NCBI GenBank assembly: GCA_028753945.1
Contig: JAPNXP010000018.1
Location: forward strand, 3,039,643-3,103,642
Source of the DNA: Hexactinellida sp. DTS-2022
Lineage: Eukaryota; Porifera; Hexactinellida
Direction of reading: 5' to 3'
Length of the DNA: 64,000 nt
Shown here: piece by piece, positions 10,840-62,374 of the stretch
Layout of the letters: every line of letters begins with the position of its first letter
How positions within the stretch are numbered: position 1 is the first letter of the stretch
Made by a program: the position numbers and the translations under genes
Notes under the pieces: model-generated
Seen by the model: only the letters and a program-made list of their open reading frames with translations
Database searches by the model: none
What the model was told of the DNA's origin: nothing

Positions 10840-10999
10840 ATTTAGTTGGTTGTTATATGAATAGTTAGACTCATAAAGATGAACGGAGAAAAGTAGGGGT
10901 CACTGATAGGATAGACGGGAAAGTTGCACAGTGGGCAAAGTAGGGGAAATAGTGTAACTTTATAACATTGTCAAATCTATTACTTATACTTTTTTTGGA

Positions 11000-12904
11000 T
11001 TCAGCATAACCTAAAACCTCTAAAACTCAATTTTTAAAGTAATACAATGCAAGGACAATGATTACTGTGAAAAGGAATGAGTAGTGTAATACTCATTTTC
11101 AAAACAGAATTTTGTGGTTAGGAAAACATTGAAATTGAATTCACCATAACTATACTATATTGTATGCTAATCTGATGCGCAATAGAAGTTTTATCTTACT
11201 AGTGTTCATAGTCAATATGGTATCAGTTAAGATAAATTTGAATCGAGTTTTGAGTCTGAAGTTGCCAGATTTTCAAGAGAGATTTTCTAAAGATTGGACA
11301 CTAATTAATTTTCACATTCAGTTCAAAAACTTTGGGTGGTTCATAATGGTCAGTTATTTCATTTTTTTGATTTACCATTGTCCCCTCAGAAAATTCCTAT
11401 AATATATATTTAATTTCTCCACTATTTAACCAATTTATTAGTTTTTTTCGTCAATTAACTGATACTTATAATGAATAACAAAGCAGTTTATGATATTTTA
11501 AAGTCAAATCTCTCAATCAGCATACCAAGTTAGGAATCCATCCATGCTTTTGAATTTCAGTAAGATAATTTTATGAGATCCGGAAGAAATTTAGGCGCTA
11601 GCAATGTTCCATATTATACAACTATGCTACCAAATACTAACTAGGGTTCCTAAGAGTAATTGCACCTGCGATAGTTACACTCAGCATCCATCTACACTCT
11701 TGAAATTCAATGCGATATATAATACCTGGGATAATACTAACATTCAAATTATTTTTAACCAGTTTAAGATATATTATCAATAATCATGGGTGATTAATAT
11801 ATGATTGTTACAAAACCAAAAATAAAATAAATCATGAATTTACCATTGATCGTCCAAAACTACTGTTATGAGATTACACACAATATTTTTGATGATGCCA
11901 TTCGGTTTGCAGCTACCGATAACCTAAATGTCAATAATACATCATTAGAGTCTATCTAGTATAGTTTTCCTATTTCCACTTACACCCCTGAAAATGCCCA
12001 CTGTGAGTTGAAGATGTAATGTGGTCGAAATTCCATTGTTCCTATTGCGTGCTAGGTGAATGGTCAAGTGATACCTCAAATCGCTAGAAAATTTATGCTA
12101 ATCACGACTAGCAAGATTTAAAACTAGCTAGGCATCATTGGAGAAAGATATATACATCAACTGATTTTCTCCTGGGGGCACATACATTGCCAATTTTCTA
12201 TAGGTGGTACAACATAAATTTCCAAAATAGGTTCTCGAAACACTCTATTTTACATTGATTGGAAATTTTATAACTCACTAGCCAGATCAACTCATATTAG
12301 CTTTATGAAGCAAAAGATTGTGAATTAGCAACTTATTATGGATAATAGAAGATTTGTCACCCTAATAAATCTTGAGTGAGATGTAAATATTGTTCTGGAA
12401 GTTGTAGACATCATTATCGGCCGAAAATACCGAAATTTGTCAAGAAACATATTTTCTATGCATTCCGCAAAATTTCACATATTAATCAGATACTACAAGT
12501 CACAAAATTGTCCGGGCCATATTATACTTATTGATATTGATCTGTAGACACACTGTTGAGGTACATAACATTCTCCATTAATGGCTTTACCGCATATAAC
12601 TCGGAATATTTTGCTACATGACAAAGCATAAATTCCAATATTTTAGGAATAGGTGAGGTCTGTAGGTCATAGTGAAAGATATGAAAACGCCGTTGAGCGT
12701 AAACTATAGTTATTCTATAATTGGAACAATCGAGAAGATTGACGTAATGAGGAAAATAGTCGAAATATCTAGAACATTATTAAGCAAAATTTGAAGAAAT
12801 AATTTAAAGGGGTTTGAAATATATTCTAAATATAATCACTGATAAATTAAAAAATATTTTGCACATTAAAATAAATGAAAAATAAAACTAACATAAACTA
12901 TTAC
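11000..12904. other. UBR4 intron sequence without recognised elements
   Basis: AT-rich, no supported gene or repeat on either strand. A fragment around 12090-12180 resembles 8735-8830 in reverse (GGAGAAAGATATATA), so at least part is old dispersed repeat. Confidence 0.5.
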
Positions 12905-26404: not shown

Positions 26405-28641
26405 ATTTTCATTGGGTTGATGTACTCCTGACAAGACAAGCTAGATCACAGTCTAAAGGTATCAAGGAATCAAGCGCAGTAAATTTTTACAAAAGACTTT
26501 TCAGAAATTTATCGCATGTAATATCTGCGGAGAACTGAGTCAGATTTGTAAACTTTTATGAAGATGAACCCCTACTTGGAATAAACAGGATTGATTATAT
26601 AATTAGCCACAAACTTATAATGTCTTACACACGTAAATCAAATACATCAAATAGTATACCAACTTATTTATAGTGTGAACGGAATTGGAATTATTTTATT
26701 AATTTGAAAATTTGATGAAGTCATCAATAAATGACGACATAACTTACAAACAAGCAACATTAAAAAGTCACCATGAAAATCGGTTGCAAAATTATCGATA
26801 ACACATAGGGAAATAATACATTATAGATACATAACGGGAACACACGTGTATTTCCATTTAAGTGCCAATTTCTTACCAGTGCACAGTGGGCTACTATAGT
26901 GTATTAGGTGAAAATTATTTATCAAAAACACTACACTTTCAAATTGGATTTCTAAAGCAAACATCTTAAATATGATATATTTCAAAATTGAATTAGATTG
27001 ACCTAATAAATTTCTAATGCTGCCTACTGTTGACCAGAATATATTTTCGGTCAAAATTGCATTTTGTTGATTAGTTTTGATGTAGCATTCCATTACGTTG
27101 AATAAACGCTAAAGGTGATAGAATGTAACAATGATATGCATACTTATTAATGAATGAACTATTATGAATTCATTTCGTATGACTAGTTTAATTCTATTTA
27201 ACTTGTTATATTAAATAATTGAGAAAATTTTCGGGGTAAACTAGCTGAAAAATTGAGAAGTATTAAAATGATTACGACTCACCGCAAAATTTTCTTCCAC
27301 CACCTTCCAGTCCAATTTTTTAATATGTTGGCCTATGAAACGTTGCTAAACCCATATTAAATGCACAACCTCCGCTTCGTTGCGCAACCTGAAAAGTATA
27401 CTTAAATTCCATTCTAACCTTTTGGTTGCTATGACTGTAAAACCATAGAAATGCAGTAATTTGCACTAGAATGAAGCGATATTTATTAGATGATTAATTA
27501 AATAATGTATATATTAGATAAAACGCCGCTTTTATTCTGTGAATCTGGTAGATTATCTTCTGAAAATGGAGCCTAAATTATTTATTCCCAAAACACGCTG
27601 GGACTTGGCTAAAAATTTGAGTGGTAGTTAATTTAGATGTAAATTTATCGTTAGAACAAAATTTAAAGAATCTGATAGTTAATCAACCCCACCCTTGCAC
27701 ACATAGATATATAGATATGTGTTTTAATGGTATTTATACATATAGGAAATCCACATAAAATAATATGCGTCATTTACCATATATGGTAAATATGATGACT
27801 CATCATATCCTGGAAACCCAATGTAAAATAGAAAGTTCGATGTAGCGAGAAGAACCGCAATGGTCGACTTACTATACAGTAATAAAACATTCTATAGTCC
27901 TATCTCATAAGATTAACGCGTAATACCCTAATACTAGAAATTGGCAATAATAGCCCACTGTGCCAGTGTGTCAATAAACACAGAGTGACCGTATCGAGCG
28001 AGAAAACTTACGAGCCCTCTATAAATTAGTTCAAGGAAATGAGCTAATGCCCAGGGAATTCTTGCAATTGTTCGTAAATTTCTCTGGGCTAAGATGGAGG
28101 AGTGACTGAAAATGACAGAATAATATCATTTAAGATAAAGGTGTAGCATAAAGGGATGCCAGGCAGGGTTGGAAAAATAAAGATTTTTGATTTATCTCCT
28201 TGTTTATTATTATTTAATTCTGGATTTAATTAAACATACTTTACTAACTAACTAATTAATGTAACAGTGAATAATAGAACAACTTCCATTTGGGAGAACA
28301 CAACATCGACTTGGCAAATATATTTTATTTATGAGATTTAGCTTGTATAAAAATACAACCTTCCCAGCTTTATAGTTCCCAACATGTTTGTTCGCTTTGG
28401 AGTGAACAAAAACCAAAGTCTCGATTCTTTTGTTCTCTGAAGCCATGACACTATTAGCGAAGTAACAAAATTATAAAAATTATAAAAATTAAAAGTCATT
28501 ATCATGATTTAAATCAAAACAACCTCGATACCAGCTCAAGATGATAGTTAATAAAGACAAACACATAAGTAGTATAATTAAATCAGACTACACTCAATAC
28601 ATACATACATATGTAGAAATAAATTGGAATAAATTACTTAC

Positions 28642-37205: not shown

Positions 37206-38402
37206 CACAGTGTGGCAAAATGGACATCTAGGCATAATAAGTATTTGTGTCCTAGATATGTCTTACAAAAATATAATTTACATATAGGAAACTGACCGTT
37301 TAGAATCCAAAAATGCAATCAAATTTTGTTTAGCACATCATGAAAGGTGATAATGACACAACACTTCTAAAATATTATAATTAGGAAGAATTAAACTGAT
37401 AAAAAGGTTGTCTTGGTAGCTATTACTAGAATGAGGACTAAACTTTGATTTCTTCTTAAAGTGATAATTAGCCAGTAGTGGGTCACATAAGCACAATAAG
37501 CGAGTTTGAATATCACGGACATTATCTGAGAAAGAAATTTTTCGAGATAGATTATCCCGATATCGCCTAACGTATTTGTTGCAAGATTCTAAACATTCCT
37601 CCGAAATATTGCTCAAACCATAACCGTTGTTATAAGATTGAATGACTTGGTATGAATGAGAAAGCAATTTATGTAAGGAAGGTGTTATATTGACCCATGA
37701 GAAAGTCACTAGAATAAATTCATACGTTTCCTTACACAGTTCCTCTAACTTGAGTGTGTTGATATTTTCTTTGCTGTTGATTAAACGTAGAACTACTGAA
37801 TGATTGCTTTGGATAACTTCCAAAAATTTTTATCGTTTGAATCAATTGATGACGTTGACCACTTGAGGAAGTCTCTCTTATTCATGAAGCAATCGCGAGC
37901 CACATTACCCGTTGTGGAAGTGCCACCCTGAGGAGAAGGAACATCTATAATAATATTACACTTTTCTTCGAACTCGTCTCATTGATTCTTGGACCTTACT
38001 GTTAGTTGGCGACCATACTTTGTGTCCAGCATCCAAATGGTATATGAGCAACATAAACCACCTGAAAACGCATAGGTATGCAAGCAAAGGGGATGCTGAT
38101 ACAGATGTTGGTTGATGAGTAATCCCAGTTCTTTGTTTAGATGGAAGTTTTTTAAAATTCTTCCTGATCAACTTCTAAAAATCAATTTAGCATCTGAGAT
38201 AAATCTATTAATGGGGAATCCAGCTCTGAGCCTCTGACCCAATCAATACTCATAATATGAGAATCAGTTGCAGTAAAGAGATTTAGTATCGAAAAGTGAG
38301 CGAATAATCGTAACATTGACATGACCTTGAGGTAGTGTAAAACAATTTTCCACAATACACTTAGTATCTGGATTGATTAGAGACTCCATGATAAAATTTA
38401 CA
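37206..38402 (-). mobile_element. RAG1-like transposon, truncated copy B
   Basis: The left terminus CACAGTGTGGCAAAATGG starts at 37206, the same 18 bases as in copy A. The coding remnant runs on the minus strand from 38402 to the stop at 37338. At 38402 the similarity stops abruptly where an unrelated higher-GC segment begins, so the N-terminal half and the right terminus were lost. Copy B lies in the 7.3 kb UBR4 intron. Confidence 0.8.
37338..38402 (-). pseudogene. RAG1-like transposase pseudogene (copy B)
   Basis: Pieces in order: MESLINPDTKCIVEN and VTIIRSLFDTK (second catalytic Asp) near 38390-38290; a deletion that removes the GGASCQLC zinc motif; GFPINRFISDAK near 38210; RTGITHQP and YLCVFRW near 38110-38060; GGTSTTGNVARDCF near 37910; then an open 161-codon tail (37823-37338) with ITPSLHKLLSHSYQV (zinc His pair) and SEECLESCNKYVRRYRDN (catalytic Glu). 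The tail frame is intact while the front is frameshifted. Confidence 0.8.
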
Positions 38403-50116: not shown

Positions 50117-52596
50117 TTAATTAATTAGCTGAAGCTTCTCCTTCCGTATAACAAGGGTACAACTCGCCGCCCAGCTCTGAGCAAGAGGAGCATCCACAAT
50201 TGAAAGAATAATCAGTATATACCCTCGACATCTATTTTTGGGCTCAGCAAGCTTTTCCAGAAGATTGATGGCCATGTGGACAAAACATGTGGTGTCTAAT
50301 GTGGGCAATCTCAACCCTCCTCTGTCAAGTTCTTGCAAGAATTCACTTGAGACTTCTTTTCCTTCTCCTGGATCTCCGTGTTTATAAGTTTAAAATCCTG
50401 CAATGAAGACTACTTTATGTTTCAAAGCGTCAGTAGAATCAAGGAGTAGCTGTGTGCCTTCGATACAACTCTCCTGCATCAGACTATATCTTGTAATGTG
50501 ATAGGTGCAGTACAATATGAGCATTTCCACTCCCCACAACCTTGTGGAATGACATTGAATTTCAGCATCTGATGCAAACGCTGTACCTTGCCAGCAGAGA
50601 TAACATCTCCTACATCAATGTAAAAGTTACCAACGTGTCGCTGCCTGGCTTGCCCGAAAAACTTTTCTAGAGGATCCTGAGAGAAAACTGCAGGAAGGAC
50701 AAATTCGAAGTGGTGATGAGTTAAGAGATACGTGGCGGCTGCAATGCTGGACTTTGTTGTTACTATGAAAGCATCAGGAGTGAATTTTGTCAATTTTTTT
50801 TGCCTCATTCGCCACCTTCCCACCGACATGAGCCAATCACATCCCACATTGCCAACAGCATTTTAAAGTTCTCACAGTTGATTGTCCAAGGAGCTCTGAA
50901 CGGATTCCGTAGATTGATAGCCCCAAATTTATCTTTGACATTCATCATTTTAAACCAATTTGTGACCAACGTAATGAACCTTATAGTCCCTTCCTGGGGA
51001 TTTATTGTGTTTTTCAGAGCCTTGAATGCTGCAATAGTCTTCTCGTGAAAAACTTGACAGACGAGTGGTACGCTCTGTCTTTGGAGAGGTTTAGGAAAAA
51101 CTGAGGTATGTGTAAGCTTTGTGAGACGTAGTGAGCTATTTCTGTCCTCTTCATAAAGTGCTTGAATATCTTTCCAGCGTGCCAAATATTCCGTACGTTC
51201 TCCATGAATGATAACTCCTGAAGTTTCTCTGTTAGCCAATTGTTTCGTAAATTCTTCATGATGTGGACGAAATCATACATAAGAAATACTTCGATGTTAT
51301 CCATTACCACTCTCCCTGGGCATCCAAGTAAATGATACACCCCTTGATTTAGCGGGCAATTATCACAAATGAAGGAGATTGGCCGCATACCACTCTTTTT
51401 CATGACTTCCATAACTTCCAACAAAATTTTACGGAGCTCTACCGAATTTATGTTCTTCACGGGATGGATAGCAAATATTAAACGCGGCCCACCTTGATGG
51501 CAAACAACTTCAGTACAAAGGGCCGAGGCAGCTTGTTCACTTGGTGCATTATTGGCATGGCCAATTATATGACCTGCTCTGAATCGAGTTGCTTTAATTA
51601 GCTTTATTTCATCGAACAGAATGTTCACAAAACGTTGCACTGGTTTGAGGTCTTTAAACAAACGCTGCAGTTCGTTGTTCTGAAAGCTGCGGGACATCAA
51701 ATCTCGAATTAATCTCTCCCTTGGAAGGATAATTGCTCTTGTATTTCGTAACATCCTGTATGCTGCTGGAGAGATACAGAGGAGTTCTCCCGCGAGAATA
51801 TGTAAATACTTTGTGTAATTGATTCTATTGGAGGGTGTCGAGAGGTAATCGAGTTGTACCTCCAGGAACTGAAAATGTGGGCATTCTTGCACTTCTGGGG
51901 TCATTTGTTTTAACAAATTCATAGCTTTTTCCAGATGATTAGCATTAGACACTTGATAGTTGTCCACAGTATAAAGTATTTCATCAACTTGAGACCATCT
52001 ATGTAGGAGGCTATTTTTGTATAGATTGAAATAACTTTTGGGTATTGCGAAGGCATCCTTCTCTGCCTCCACCAAGTGCAGGAATCCAAAATGGGATTGC
52101 ACTTCCTTGAAGTAGATAAATTGGGTCACATTTCTTCCTAGGTCATCCAACTTAAACATTGTCAACTTTCTGCATTGGTTTTTGAAACTGAATGATGCAT
52201 AGCGTTCTTCAACCTCCTCCGTAAATGTTGAAAAACTAACAATCTTATCCAATTTTTTCAGATATTCCTCTTGTAATTGATTACGTACTTCGGAGGTAGC
52301 CTTCTTTGTTGGTCTGGGATACGTCAAGGATTGTTTCTTACAAGATTTGGCTATTCCTTTAAAATAGGTAGGAGGTCCAATTGGCCGTTTTCCACCTTTT
52401 ACAGTGATCCATTCACATTCAAAATGTGATGCACACACAAAGATTTCTCTTCGATCCTTGAGACTCGCAGGGTTATTTGGCATTGCCTCAATCCACCTAT
52501 TCCGTTCAATTTGTTCAGTAGGAAAACTAACAACTGGAGTATAGGCTCTCCAATATAATTGCCCCGACAATTATACGCTGCACAATGTTTTGGCAT
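50117..52596 (-). pseudogene. THAP9/P-element-like transposase, broken
   Basis: Starts MPKHCAAYNCRGNYIGEP, the N-terminus of a THAP zinc-binding domain. A one-base loss near 52545 shifts the frame into YTPVVSFPTEQIERNRW, continuing with FVCASHFECEW (the THAP Cys/His). The main frame (52570-51014, 518 codons) carries the RNase H-like core with YDFVHIMKNLRNNWL. A second shift near 51240 leads into ERTEYLARWKDIQALYEED, and a third near 50830 leads to the DPLEKFFGQARQRHVGNFYI motif. A TAA at 50392-50390 interrupts IAGF/TYKHGD before the conserved tail ELDRGGLRLPTLDT. At least three frameshifts and one stop mean this copy is inactive as sequenced, unless the shifts are assembly errors. Confidence 0.9.
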
Positions 52597-54212: not shown

Positions 54213-55405
54213 GCTGGCATGCCATCTATTAAAGAATTATGGGTCAAATTCCTTAACCGTGAGAACTATACAATCAAGACTCAATCGTGTATTTGTATTG
54301 ACCGCTTTGAAGAGAAGTATATTGTACAAAACGCTAAATGACAAAGGCTTATTCCCTACAGTAATAATCCAATACCTACAATTAATCCTGATGCCATCCT
54401 TTTAACAGGGGCGTCAGAAGGGGGGGGCACAAGGGGGCACGTGCCCCCCTCAAAGATCTCGGTGCCCCCCCAACGGTGCCCCCCTCACCTGTGCATCCCC
54501 TCGCCTGTGCCCCCTTCCCCTGTCCTAATAGATGAAATAACAACACCAATGATATACATGAGTTCAAATGTCATGATACTACTGCTCTTATTCGATGTTA
54601 AACTATCAAAAAAGACATAAAATCACGTGGGGTTATATACTACTAAGAATTAGTTTTGGTCTGTGCCCCCCCTAAAATCTGATTGCCCCCTCTCCGATTA
54701 CACGCTTCCGACGCCCCTGCCTTTTAAGCCTCTCAACTGCACCAACTTTGCCTAGGAAGGCTCCCCAAAACGTGTTTTCAGGAGGACCAACTCAAAGATT
54801 TCAAGATTAAATACCAAGTAAATAACCTAGATGACATCAAAACATATCTAGAAACAGCTCCTGAATATGAAAATTTTCATCTGTTCCTGTCTGAGTCTGA
54901 CTTGACAGTATATAATATACAGATCCTTTCTGGAATAGCGAAAGTGCAAGAATGTATCAACATCGATAGTGTTATACGTGTAAAGCTCAGTTTCAAAGGG
55001 TTACCAATCCCACTTCCTGAGTACATTCGGAATTCCGCCAACTATAAATTGACTTCTCTTGATATGTTGACTAATTTACCCAATTATTGTAGAAACTATA
55101 TTGGTTCGCACGATGGTTGTGATATCAAAGTAATACAAGAGTTACTGAATTCTACTTACTATCATTCTAAAGGAAGACCAAAGTACTCGCATAACACACT
55201 CAGATTCGCTCTATTAATGCGCTACACTTCAAATTCTGCCTACAAATTTCTGAAGCAATACCTACCACTACCATCTGAAACTGTACTTACACAGCTAAAA
55301 TCTCCTTCAATTCAGAGTTGTTCAGCTCTTTGTGCACTTAGGGATAATAATTTAATTGGCAATGATGCAGTGTTACTCCTTGATGTAATGCATCTACAAC
55401 AACAG
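54213..55405 (+). pseudogene. P2 transposase, THAP and N-terminal part
   Basis: After an acceptor TTCTATCTTAG the frame reads AGMPSIKELWVKFLNRE, then CICIDRFEEKYIVQN, the second half of a THAP domain. A stop follows at about 54340. A hAT MITE (54406-54719, with duplicated CCTTTTAA) splits the linker. From about 54780 the frame EDQLKDFKIKYQVNNLDD runs openly through PEYIRNSANYKLTS and GRPKYSHNTLRFALLMRY to LLLDVMHLQQQ, the first catalytic-Asp region of P transposases, ending at a donor CAG/GTTTGT (55406). The exon with the first THAP cysteines was not recognised. The sequence resembles the large P/THAP families of invertebrate genomes. Confidence 0.75.
54406..54719. mobile_element. hAT-type MITE in P2
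   Basis: Ends CAGGGGCGTC and GACGCCCCTG with a perfect 8-bp duplication CCTTTTAA (54398-54405, 54720-54727). The interior holds several GTGCCCCCC runs. Confidence 0.9.
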
Positions 55406-55506
55406 GTTTGTTGATCTTTCTTTTTTGAAGAGTTAAATATTTTGTGTATAAGCGTAGACTACTTTATTCATGTTATGCTATATTATATAGGTTCAGTATG
55501 ACGGGT

Positions 55507-58077: not shown

Positions 58078-58623
58078 TATATACTATCAGTTATTTTAAA
58101 TAATCAAAAAATGTACTACAATCAATTCTTTTATTTTACTCATTTTTACGAGATTCATTAGAGACCAATACCAAATTGAATAAATTATATACTGTGCGGC
58201 TTTGTGCGGGCCTGGAAATTATCTTAAACTAAAGTTAAGATGCTAAATTACTATTAGAAAACATAAAATCTCCTACCCAAGAGCACCCAAGACACAATTT
58301 CCAACTATATTGGCAAATAAATTTGTGTCCGATCTTGAGTAAAGCGTAAAATTAGATATCCAATTTTAAGTGAATAGTATTCATAAGCATTCTCTTTATA
58401 GCAATGAGATTAAGTTGAATACTTAGAAAATTAAAAACCTATTCAGTTTCATTCACTATACTATGCAGAACGACTTTATAAATAGAATATTTCCGATTGT
58501 GAAACCGAAATATTCAATCTCTAATTCCAATTATATCACATCATTCATTCAGACTCACTGTATTCAAAATATTGAAGTCCTAGGACTTTATAAACTTCGC
58601 ATTCTAGGTTTTAGACAATGCTG

Positions 58624-58660
58624 CACAGTGGTCCAGAATGGCGATTATCTTCGAATAGGC
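58624..58660 (+). repeat. Left terminal inverted repeat of RAG1-like copy C
   Basis: Heptamer CACAGTG at 58624-58630, then GTCCAG, then a 10-base segment absent from the other end (AATGGCGATT), then ATCTTCGAATAGGC at 58647-58660 followed by ATTTTT. The distance from heptamer to second block is 16 bp. Confidence 0.85.
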
Positions 58661-58685
58661 ATTTTTACACATCCTAGGTACATAG

Positions 58686-58945
58686 AATGTATTATTTGGG
58701 TATGGGTTATCGACCCTAAGAAAGCGATTGGTGTAATCAGAATTACTGTATGGCTTCAATTTTTTTAATTATGACGTCATCATATTCAAACAAAATGCCA
58801 TTTCGTCTCTATAATTGGCTCTAAATGGACAATATACACATATAATGTATTATTTGGGTATGGGTTATCAATCCTAAGGAAGAGATTGGTATAATCAGAA
58901 TTCTTGTATGGCTTCAATACCTGTAATTATGACGTCATCAAATTT
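58686..58945 (+). repeat. Subterminal tandem duplication inside RAG1-like copy C
   Basis: Two units of about 158 bp (starting near 58686 and 58844) share TGTATTATTTGGGTATGGG, GATTGGTATAATCAGAATT-like and TATGGCTTCAAT stretches. Each contains the palindrome TGACGTCA (58772-58779 and 58930-58937), a CREB/ATF-type site. A weaker third unit may lie near 59000-59050. The repeats lie between the left end and the 3' end of the transposase gene and could be transposase or host-factor binding sites. Confidence 0.7.
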
Positions 58946-59144
58946 GAAAAAATTGTCTTTCATATCTAAAATGCTATTTATCTTGATAATAGAGTACCGA
59001 AATATATTAATTAGGTATATGATGACATTCCTAGGATATCAATTGGGATTATTTATTATTTTTAAATATTTATAAGTTATTAAATTATACAATAACAAGA
59101 CATTATTATCTTTCTGAGCTTCAACAGTTTACATAAATTTCTTA

Positions 59145-61061
59145 TTAATTACAATCGCTACAGAAACAATTATTACTACCTATATCACAAATAATCAGTG
59201 AATTTACAAGTAAATCTTGTTGTGACAACTCCTTGGATAAATTTTTGTTTCTCTTGGATTCTACTTTTGTATGACAACTTCTCCTAACCATTAGAAGAAT
59301 AGGATCGCTTTGAGTTATAAGCCTTATAAATATATCTCTAACGTTATCATTAAAGGATGTTTTACGAGCAAGTTTGTCTCTATAATGGCGTATATGCTTA
59401 TTTAAAGCTTCGATACACTCCTCAGAGTACAACTTTAACCCGCATCCATTGTTGTACTTGTCGGTAAGTTCAGTGGAATGTGCCAAAAGTTTGTGAAGAG
59501 AAGGGGTAATGCTGATCCAGGGGAAATTGTTCACTATATACTCATAAGTAGTTTTGCAAAGCATTTCAAGTTTCCCGACGTCCAATTTATGGCTACTGTT
59601 AAAAACACGAAGTATTGCGCCAAGGTTTGTGTGAATAATTATGAGCTTTTCTTTATCTTCTGGAGCGATAGTGGACGTAGCCCACCTCAATAAATCGCGT
59701 TTATTGTTAAAACAATCTCTAGCGACGTTTCCAGTGGAACTTGTTCCTCCATCACAAGAAGGTAAATCAATGTGATATGAAGTTTCCTTCAATAACAAAT
59801 TGCGGATTCTGTTCATCGATTTTTGCACCTGGGAGGAAGTTGGTGACCATTTTGTAGTGCCAGCGTCTAAATGATATATAACTAACATTAGCCATCTAAA
59901 AACGCAAAGGTAGCTATGTAGTGGAGAAACAGGTAGGATATCTTTTTCAGATATTGGAGGATGTGTTAACCCGTATCTCGATTTGGAATCCAATTTCAAG
60001 AATTCTTCGTGATTACTCACATCATTAAATAGGATCTTTGCATCATGAATGAAACGATTAATTGGAAATCCATCCCTTATTAAATTCAAGTCTTTTAATT
60101 GCGTGTGGTTAGCAGTACACAACTGGCAACTAGCTCCACCAGCACCGCTCAATGTTGCAGACATTTTTGAATCAAATAATGATCTAATTATCCTAACGTT
60201 GACATGATCACCAGTAATGTCCAAGCCAGAATCTTCTATTATTGATGTTTGAGGATTTATTAGTTCAGTCATTAAAAATTGAACGTTCTGAATATTCTCT
60301 TTGAGAGATATCAGGACTACAGGTCTAGTAACATAAGGAGAATTAGGAGTATCGTTTGACCATAATATTTCACAATTTTTGGATGTTATCTTGAGGATTT
60401 TAAAAGCGAAGAGTATGAAATTTTTTGTTGAAAAATCTGTGTTAGTCTGAAGTTGATTATAGACTTTATAGCTGCCTGATCCATCTAGGCCATCTGCGAC
60501 ATCTATTGTTAATGGAAATTTGGTAGTATCAATACTCAATTGTTTTGACATTCTTTCGGTTGTAAAAGTTAGAATTTTCGAGTACGCGATACCTACCCCA
60601 ATTGGATAACCATCACGATGGTTCACAATTTCAATATGACTAGAGAGTGCCAGTTCGCGCCTATAAGTGGCTAGTTTATTGTATGTGGGGGTTGTAAAAC
60701 CTTCTGGTTTACAAATGACTCGCAATTCAGTGTATTTTCGTTTACCTATTTCCAGGATATCCATCAATGCTGCTGCCTTATCAAACTGTAATTTGCAATT
60801 CGTTTCTGCTAATACCCCAGTTTCAGCGATTTCTTTGCAAACTTCCGAAGTTTTCCTATCATAATCCTTATTTGCAATAAGCTCCAGTGACATTGCTGCT
60901 ATTTGTTTTGCAGTAACTGACTCTCTTTCAGCAATAAAGGCAATATGATCTAGGAGGATATTAAGTCTGTGTTTCAGAGATTCCTTCGTTACAGTGCAGA
61001 TATGTTTCCTAGATTTTAGGACTTTCTCTTCAATGGAGATTTTTTGCCAGTATCTATTAAT
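59145..61061 (-). CDS. RAG1-like (Transib/RAG1 superfamily) transposase, core region
   Basis: Open frame from 61061 to the stop at 59145; the first ATG is at 60893 (582 residues from there). Numbered from that ATG: D134 in DVADGLDGSG, D241 in SLFDSKM and E495 in SEECIEALNK align with RAG1 D600, D708 and E962. The spacings are 107 and 254 residues, against 108 and 254 in mouse RAG1. Zinc ligands are also present: C256-x2-C259 (SCQLC) and H467-x4-H472 (LHKLLAH), matching RAG1 C727/C730 and H937/H942. GNVARDCF aligns with RAG1 GNFARKLM. The C-terminal tail holds C569, C576, C578 and C581. RAG1/Transib enzymes cut at the heptamer by nick-hairpin chemistry in the nucleus. The first ATG is probably not the true start, because the frame continues upstream and joins the 102-codon frame by a one-base shift. 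Confidence 0.88.
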   Translation of the reverse strand: MNRYWQKISIEEKVLKSRKHICTVTKESLKHRLNILLDHIAFIAERESVTAKQIAAMSLELIANKDYDRKTSEVCKEIAETGVLAETNCKLQFDKAAALMDILEIGKRKYTELRVICKPEGFTTPTYNKLATYRRELALSSHIEIVNHRDGYPIGVGIAYSKILTFTTERMSKQLSIDTTKFPLTIDVADGLDGSGSYKVYNQLQTNTDFSTKNFILFAFKILKITSKNCEILWSNDTPNSPYVTRPVVLISLKENIQNVQFLMTELINPQTSIIEDSGLDITGDHVNVRIIRSLFDSKMSATLSGAGGASCQLCTANHTQLKDLNLIRDGFPINRFIHDAKILFNDVSNHEEFLKLDSKSRYGLTHPPISEKDILPVSPLHSYLCVFRWLMLVIYHLDAGTTKWSPTSSQVQKSMNRIRNLLLKETSYHIDLPSCDGGTSSTGNVARDCFNNKRDLLRWATSTIAPEDKEKLIIIHTNLGAILRVFNSSHKLDVGKLEMLCKTTYEYIVNNFPWISITPSLHKLLAHSTELTDKYNNGCGLKLYSEECIEALNKHIRHYRDKLARKTSFNDNVRDIFIRLITQSDPILLMVRRSCHTKVESKRNKNLSKELSQQDLLVNSLIICDIGSNNCFCSDCN

Positions 61062-61324
61062 TTACCGGAGATAATTGAACATTTAGACAATTCTAGGTCA
61101 TCGATAAGTAATTCGCTTTGGGATTGAAAGGGAGTATCATTCCAGCTGTCCAATTTACCATTTTTACGAAATCGCACTCGCTCTGAAATTAAGTCCCTAA
61201 AACGGTAGCGAAAATGTTCATACTCTGTTTCAGGTAGCTGGAATATCTCCAAAAAATCATTTGTAGCATCATTTACATTTTCATTATGTCCTTTTAAGAG
61301 GTTGTATGCTCCTAGATTATTCAT
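61016..61324 (-). CDS. N-terminal part of the RAG1-like transposase, shifted frame
   Basis: A 102-codon frame (MNNLGAYNLLKG...) ending in GKKSPLKRKS, directly upstream of and overlapping the transposase core frame by 46 bases in another frame. The basic run KSPLKRK reads on naturally into VLKSRKHICTVTKE of the core frame if one base is gained or lost near 61025. There is no room for an intron. Joined in that order the protein would be about 730 residues, close to Transib transposases and shorter than RAG1. No RING finger or other N-terminal zinc module of RAG1 is visible; the sequence is acidic and then basic. Confidence 0.65.
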   Translation of the reverse strand: MNNLGAYNLLKGHNENVNDATNDFLEIFQLPETEYEHFRYRFRDLISERVRFRKNGKLDSWNDTPFQSQSELLIDDLELSKCSIISGKLIDTGKKSPLKRKS

Positions 61325-62261
61325 TATCTTGTCTCGTTGGTTACTGTACGTGCAAAATTGATAGTTGTAAATGCAAATGTATTGATTTATTATTTATTCT
61401 ATTTATATCCTCATTAGACGAATGCATTTATTATTATATGGTTATCTTATGGCTTTGAAGATTTACAGTACAATTGTGTTTCAATGAATCTTCACTGGCT
61501 TTATTCACGATCTTATTAAACTTCAATTATTAACCATTAATTATTAAAAGCGTATCATGTTCATGGTTTCAATAATGGAATTGAAACATTTAAATCATGA
61601 TTTGAAATATTTTTCTATGAGTTCGTTTACAAATTAATACAAGCGTAGATAATCAATCCATTCGTTACTATAATGCGTGTTATTGTACGAGTATTTTACA
61701 CTTTCTATTTAACCATAATAAAAAAATATTTTTAGATAAAAATTTTTCTTCTTAAAATGATGTGTACCGCACTCCCTTCCAGCTGCTAAACGACCATCCG
61801 CGCGCCTCCGCGCTACCCTGAACCCTATATGATATCTTTTCAGAATATAATGATCTTTCAAATGAAATTAATTTCATCTAACGCTTTGAAACGCGTCAAA
61901 AGTTATTACACAATAAACTTCCATTGATAAACTAAATTTCTTTTTAGGTCTTCATGTACTAATATCTACTTACACTCATCCTTTAGAGCTCTGATGTTGT
62001 GTTTATCTTAAAGTACACTTAAAATTGATTTAGAAACATTCCTTCCAAATTTAAAATCCTCCAAATACGAAAGACACAAAAATAAGATAGAAAAATTTCA
62101 AAAAATATTGTTATTAAATTCTGTTTGCAAGTCAAGGTTTACCAGAGCATAGTCCAAATATATTTACGTTTGATCATCAAAAAATTACGGATTCTAGGGT
62201 TTTCGACTCCGCTGAAATCGATTATAATAGTTTCGAAACGATTTGACTAGGTCAATTTTTT

Positions 62262-62289
62262 GCCTATTCGAAGATGCTGGACCACTGTG
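62262..62289 (-). repeat. Right terminal inverted repeat of RAG1-like copy C
   Basis: In reverse complement: CACAGTG (62289-62283), GTCCAGC, then ATCTTCGAATAGGC (62275-62262) followed by six A. The heptamer-to-block distance is 7 bp, nine shorter than at the left end. This end faces the 5' side of the transposase gene. Confidence 0.85.
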
Positions 62290-62374
62290 GCTGAATTCGA
62301 TAATAATAATATGCCCTATATTCGTGAGTGTGAAAAATACCCCTACTTCTCCCCATTGGCCCACTGTGGCATGC

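What the first reader, a model, noticed from the sequence alone, without database searches (positions are those of the whole stretch)
58624..62289. RAG1-like transposon whose ends start with the V(D)J heptamer and whose transposase keeps the full RAG1 active site
Seen: both ends begin CACAGTG; the enclosed minus-strand protein has D134, D241 and E495 with spacings 107 and 254, CxxC and HxxxxH. Known: RAG1 uses D600, D708 and E962 (spacings 108 and 254) with zinc ligands C727/C730/H937/H942, and cuts next to CACAGTG. Inference: a near-complete RAG1/Transib-family transposon with no RAG2-like partner, in an invertebrate. It could be a distinct lineage between Transib and ProtoRAG.
Basis: partly seen in the sequence, partly recalled or inferred. 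Interest (0 to 1): 0.92.

Follow-up and report, generated by a model that had tools for sequence, protein, structure and literature searches.

The report
Glass-sponge Transib with long/short ends
This is a recently active jumping gene of the RAG1/Transib kind in what is probably a glass-sponge genome, and its two ends carry the same recognition word at two different distances, much like the signal pairs used to build vertebrate antibody genes.

Summary
58624-62289 is a Transib-family DNA transposon bordered by CACAGTG, one of a multi-copy family in a 112 Mb genome whose only named protein relatives are from the glass sponge Oopsacas minuta. An identical 15-bp block lies 7 bp from the heptamer on the transposase-5' side and 16 bp on the 3' side. 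Other subfamilies use other blocks but mostly the same 9-10 bp offset and polarity; among the ends listed, 45 of 47 facing pairs are one long plus one short end. The protein has a RAG1-type nonamer-binding segment and a zinc-region segment as long as RAG1's, which insect Transibs lack. I infer RAG-like cut-and-paste pairing one long with one short end, without RAG2; that the pairing is required is not shown. Asymmetric Transib ends are already in print (Subgroup I, 2022), so this is a new member of a known kind, but a favourable one for testing how a 12/23-like rule works.

The parts
58624..58661 (+). Long end (transposase 3' side): heptamer CACAGTG 58624-58630, 16-bp spacer 58631-58646, block ATCTTCGAATAGGCA 58647-58661
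62261..62289 (-). Short end (transposase 5' side): heptamer CACAGTG 62289-62283, 7-bp spacer, same 15-bp block 62275-62261
59145..61058 (-). Transposase frame open over 637 codons (Transib/RAG1 superfamily), lacking the N-terminal part because of a frame break
61016..61324 (-). N-terminal part of the transposase in another frame (102 aa); sibling L041 has the whole in one frame
60810..61034 (-). Segment homologous to the RAG1 nonamer-binding domain (residues 9-83 of the 637-aa frame)
60483..60485 (-). Codon of D192, equivalent of RAG1 D600
60171..60173 (-). Codon of D296, equivalent of RAG1 D708
59409..59411 (-). Codon of E550, equivalent of RAG1 E962
59919..60116 (-). 66-residue segment between zinc CxxC and the LH motif (probable alpha11-12 / RAG2-contact equivalent of RAG1); 30 residues in the insect Transibs measured
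58772..58779 (.). TGACGTCA palindrome 148 bp inside the long end; second copy at 58930-58937
58680..58960 (+). Two sub-terminal direct repeats (58680-58802, 58838-58960; 85% identical, 158 bp apart)
58620..58623 (.). GCTG, left copy of the 4-bp target duplication (right copy 62290-62293)
62290..62368 (.). Rest of the target repeat, itself ending in another Transib end (CACAGTGGGCCAATGGGGAGAAGTAGG, read from 62368 leftwards): nested insertion
10927..12005 (.). Short non-autonomous Transib with one short and one long end; 5-bp duplication AGTTG on both sides
26882..27962 (.). Second short non-autonomous Transib with one short and one long end (block GTATTAGG, offset 9); no exact 5-bp duplication
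37338..37829 (-). C-terminal fragment resembling another Transib transposase (by eye; no Pfam hit)

Best explanation
A cut-and-paste Transib transposon. A transposase dimer recognises two bipartite ends: the heptamer CACAGTG at the border, and an inner block that lies about 9-10 bp (about one helical turn) deeper at the 3' end than at the 5' end. The RAG1-like core nicks beside the heptamer and, by analogy with RAG1 and HzTransib, makes flank hairpins, excises the element and inserts it with a 5-bp target duplication. The RAG1-type nonamer-binding domain holds the inner blocks, and because their spacing differs the complex accepts one long plus one short end, a 12/23-like pairing done without RAG2. 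Shown: family, residues, borders, duplications, empty site, recent copies, near-constant offset and polarity, long+short composition of nearly all facing pairs counted, homology to the RAG1 nonamer-binding domain. Inferred: block binding by that domain, one-turn geometry, hairpin chemistry, and that long+short pairing is required rather than only inherited.
Against: No biochemistry. Copies of one family are not independent, so the pair counts overstate the number of events, and short derivatives could inherit unlike ends from an internally deleted parent without any rule. Two of 17 elements do not show the offset: L018 gives 14 (4 bp fewer in its short end than relative L027), and L017 is not resolved by the script; in L020 and L021 offset 0 scores above 9. 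One facing pair is long+long (two different block types, probably two elements) and one has an odd gap of 26. In 4 of 17 elements the element's own two blocks are not each other's best match, and 7 of the 13 others are ties, mostly with near-copies or kin. Only 200 of 544 ends were listed for two of the blocks. The window copy's frame is broken.
Confidence: 0.78

Rival explanations
1. An ordinary Transib whose unlike ends are only an inherited accident: the transposase reads the heptamer and adjoining bases, and the inner block and its spacing do not matter.
For: Most Transib families are described as having symmetric ends, with little nonamer similarity (PMC8289069 passages). RAGL elements are proposed to rely on the terminal 15-17 bp and to be rather insensitive to asymmetry (PMC7204232 passages). 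Short derivatives inherit their parents' ends.
Against: The block sequence differs between subfamilies yet matches between the two ends of one element, best or tied best in 13 of 17, while the offset stays 9-10 in most. Gap lengths are bimodal for four block sequences.
Confidence: 0.2
2. A RAGL (RAG1L-RAG2L) transposon that lost RAG2L, rather than a Transib that never had it.
For: The zinc-region segment matching RAG1's RAG2-contact region is kept: 65-67 residues in 22 of 22 glass-sponge sequences chosen, 64 in mouse RAG1, 70 in the 3 of 7 RAG1L-like sequences measurable, 30 in the 9 of 13 insect sequences measurable. A loss scenario is proposed in PMC7204232.
Against: Best matches are to HzTransib rather than BbRAG1L. 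Published analysis finds the same segment in bacterial and Subgroup I Transibs (PMC9435367), so it may simply be ancestral. The tree is unrooted.
Confidence: 0.12
3. A domesticated recombinase with a host function (for example programmed DNA rearrangement).
For: Open reading frames with the active site kept in several copies.
Against: Many dispersed copies with target duplications, broken frames and short derivatives, the signature of a transposon.
Confidence: 0.03

Closest known systems
Transib Subgroup I (Tao et al. 2022, PMC9435367)
   Same: Asymmetric ends, alpha11-12-like region, NBD-like domain, single transposase gene; some relatives here also have the CX2CX3GHX4C tail
   Different: The window family lacks that C-terminal zinc tail; probable glass-sponge host (no sponge is named in the main text read); subfamily-specific inner blocks at a near-constant 9-10 bp offset
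HzTransib (insect Transib; PDB 6pqn/6pqx)
   Different: HzTransib ends are described as symmetric (PMC8289069 passage); its group lacks the alpha11-12-like segment (30 against 66 residues)
AanRAGL and ProtoRAG (RAG1L-RAG2L transposons)
   Same: Bipartite asymmetric ends; AanRAGL spacers 4/13 bp differ by 9 bp as here (PMC9435367); ProtoRAG 27/31 (PMC8289069)
   Different: No RAG2L in this element
Vertebrate RAG1 and 12/23 recombination signals
   Same: Heptamer CACAGTG identical; active-site triad, zinc ligands, NBD; two spacer classes differing by about one helical turn
   Different: The inner block is not the A-rich nonamer; difference 9-10 bp, not 11; no RAG2 in the element
Transib5 (D. melanogaster) and Transib2/N1-N3 (An. 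gambiae)
   Same: Reported 12/23-like asymmetric ends (review passages PMC8355894; the 2005 original is not held)
   Different: Their inner motif is nonamer-like according to that review; sequences not compared here

Membership tests
Transib superfamily | RAG1-like RNase H core with DDE triad and CxxC/HxxxxH zinc ligands | tested here: met
Transib superfamily | Ends starting with a CACWRTG-like heptamer (consensus recalled) | tested here: met
   CACAGTG
Transib superfamily | 5-bp target-site duplication | tested here: met
   8 of 12 family copies exact; 12 of 14 two-ended elements of other subfamilies; the window copy has 4 bp
Transib superfamily | Single gene, no RAG2-like partner in the element | tested here: met
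   no ORF of 80 aa or more wholly inside the element other than the two transposase pieces. The genome-wide RAG2 search is uninformative: its controls did not ring
Transib Subgroup I | Asymmetric ends | tested here: met
[quoted passage not shown]
   66 residues in the window, 65-67 in 22 of 22 glass-sponge sequences chosen; judged by segment length and alignment, not by a structural overlay of the helices
Transib Subgroup I | CTT1 tail (CX2CX3GHX4C) | tested here: not met
   absent in the window family; a pattern (C..C...[GS]H, 4-5, C) finds it in 6 of 14 database relatives and 3 of 7 own-genome sequences, the sibling counted. So the window family is filed as Transib, Subgroup-I-like
Transib Subgroup I | Phylogenetic placement with published Subgroup I sequences | not tested
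   those sequences were not at hand; the tree has none
RAGL (RAG1L-RAG2L) transposon | Linked RAG2L gene | tested here: not met
   none within the element
12/23-type pairing rule | Reaction requires one end of each spacer class | not testable with these tools
   only the composition of natural pairs could be counted: 45 of 47 long+short among listed ends

The most novel reading that the evidence does not exclude
These transposons enforce a true 12/23-like pairing rule (one long plus one short end, about a helical turn apart) with a RAG1-type nonamer-binding domain and no RAG2. The rule would then be older than, and independent of, RAG2 and the vertebrate immune system, whereas a review states that in jawed vertebrates the asymmetry is recognised only when RAG1 is complexed with RAG2 (PMC8355894 passage).
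Probability: 0.42. Interest if true: 0.8.

Novelty: new member of a known kind. Interest (0 to 1): 0.56.

Why it matters
How the 12/23 rule of V(D)J recombination arose is an open question. This genome offers many natural ends of related transposons (607 exact matches for three block sequences) in which the inner recognition block changes between subfamilies while the 9-10 bp offset and the polarity mostly stay the same. That is a ready test set for which protein domain reads the block, and for whether unlike ends are required without RAG2. It also points to a large, recently active Transib radiation in a probable glass sponge; I found no mention of Transib in the main texts of two glass-sponge genome papers.

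Full report
What is there. The element at 58624-62289 (3666 bp) has ends CACAGTGGTCCAG... on both sides. On the minus strand it holds a 637-codon open frame (59145-61058) and, in another frame, the N-terminal 102 codons (61016-61324). A sibling copy, 99.4% identical over the whole element, has one open 726-aa frame, so the window copy looks like a recently broken member of a young family. The left-end sequence has 23 matches in the genome, 9 of them (the window included) 100% over 77 bp; the right end has 18. Of 21 stretches read, 12 show both ends, 8 one end and 1 none; 23 of 24 ends of the two-ended copies begin CACAGTG, and 4 of the 8 single ends have a changed heptamer. Exact 5-bp duplications flank 8 of 12; the window copy has 4 bp (GCTG), L043 is shifted by one base, L040 and L048 have none. 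The window copy sits inside an older repeat: four of four other copies of that repeat that I fetched are uninterrupted at the junction and 92-94% identical to the joined flanks; they read one base differently at the junction, so the exact target letters are inferred. That repeat itself ends in a Transib end at 62368, so the insertion is nested.

Host. Ten of the 77 protein relatives carry a name, and all ten are from Oopsacas minuta, a glass sponge. 'Glass sponge' for the window is therefore an inference.

RAG1-like extras. The N-terminal segment aligned alone (15 sequences) finds the RAG1 nonamer-binding domain first among 177,635 PDB sequences (E 0.00086; all 16 hits at E<=1 are RAG1). Between the zinc CxxC and the LH motif the glass-sponge sequences have 65-67 residues (22 of 22 chosen), mouse RAG1 64, RAG1L-like proteins 70 (3 of 7 measurable) and insect Transibs 30 (9 of 13 measurable). 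In RAG1 this part includes the RAG2-binding alpha11-12 region (PMC9435367); that the sponge segment is its equivalent is judged from length and alignment. The C-terminal CX2CX3GHX4C-type tail is present in some relatives (6 of 14 and 3 of 7) but not in the window family.

The ends. In this family the identical 15-bp block ATCTTCGAATAGGCA lies 7 bp from the heptamer at one end and 16 bp at the other. A pattern with a free gap of 0-25 finds 12 long and 6 short ends, nothing between, and no match to the reversed control. Other subfamilies (45-56% protein identity for those with both ends) have the same plan with other blocks. Of 17 elements compared, the best ungapped match between the two ends lies at an offset of 9 or 10 in 13 and second best in 2 (L020, L021); L018 gives 14 (4 bp fewer in its short end than relative L027), and L017 is unresolved. 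Shuffled ends give 9 or 10 in 4.8%. Fifteen of the 17 carry a transposase; the block lies deeper on the transposase 3' side in 12 of these by the best match, in 2 more by the second best, and L017 is open.

Genome-wide counts. CACAGTGG followed within 30 bp by GGAAATAGG occurs 400 times (control 0, 100 listed), by GGAAGTAGG 144 times (control 0, 100 listed), by AGGGAATAG 63 times (control 0, all listed). Among the 200 listed of the first two, gaps are 9-12 (75), 18-20 (123), 14 (1) and 26 (1); for the third, 8-9 (26) and 18 (37). Facing neighbours under 8 kb among listed ends: 26 of 28 and 19 of 19 are long+short. Of the two exceptions one has an odd gap of 26, and one is long+long with ends of two different block types. 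Neighbours under 100 kb that do not face each other are mixed (26 long+long, 17 long+short, 11 short+short, 1 with an odd gap). Many pairs are copies of one short derivative, so these are not independent events.

How it probably works. The core resembles HzTransib and RAG1, so I infer nick, flank hairpin, excision and 5-bp staggered insertion. The inner block is best explained as the site of the RAG1-type nonamer-binding domain: it changes in step at the two ends of one element (own block best in 6 and tied best in 7 of 17), while its distance classes stay nearly constant. Two classes about one helical turn apart, nearly always one of each in a pair, recall 12/23 signals. Whether unlike ends are required or merely inherited cannot be decided from sequence.

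What is known. Asymmetric Transib ends are in print: for some insect Transibs (review passages, PMC8355894) and for all Subgroup I Transibs (PMC9435367, main text read whole), where the RAGL element of Aureococcus has 4/13-bp spacers, also 9 bp apart. Symmetric ends are stated for most Transib families (PMC8289069 passages). The present case adds a probable glass-sponge radiation with subfamily-specific blocks, near-fixed offset and polarity, and large natural counts. In a tree of 44 chosen sequences the glass-sponge, insect-Transib and RAG1/RAG1L groups each form one side of a branch (support 100/99 or better); the tree is unrooted and the program warns of long branches, so it does not say which is intermediate.

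Noticed in passing
58772-58779 and 58930-58937; long ends of other loci: A TGACGTCA palindrome (the letters of a CREB/ATF site, recalled) lies 145-149 bp inside the long end in 12 of 16 transposase-bearing elements, at 100 in one and absent in three, and in 0 of 2 short derivatives of the window; short ends have it in 1 of 11. Further words (AATGTATTAT, GGTTATC) are also kept in many, so the long end seems to be a conserved module of about 160 bp on the side away from the gene start. Genome-wide, 13 GGAAATAGG ends carry it at about that distance, all with the long gap as printed. Function unknown.
   Followed up: partly
58680-58960: Sub-terminal 158-bp direct repeats in the long end; in L028, L033 and L035 a second TGACGTCA also sits 158 bp after the first.
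   Followed up: partly
50479-52570 (-), 54728-55414 (+): P-element/THAP9-like transposase pieces: TNP-like RNase H N-terminal, GTP-binding insertion and P-element HTH hits above cut-off, THAP and RNase H C-terminal hits just below. More such protein just right of 62300 by eye; Pfam found nothing significant there.
   Followed up: partly
10927-12005 and 26882-27962: Two short non-autonomous Transibs in the same window, each with one long and one short end.
   Followed up: yes
L041, L013, L017 and L030 compared with L021, L022 and L035: The C-terminal zinc tail is present in some glass-sponge subfamilies and absent in others, although those with both ends resolved are asymmetric; a possible natural test of what the tail does.
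   Followed up: no
L048 (left junction), L043 (right junction): Extra bases between element and duplication (TG; G), possibly junction-processing traces (read by eye).
   Followed up: no
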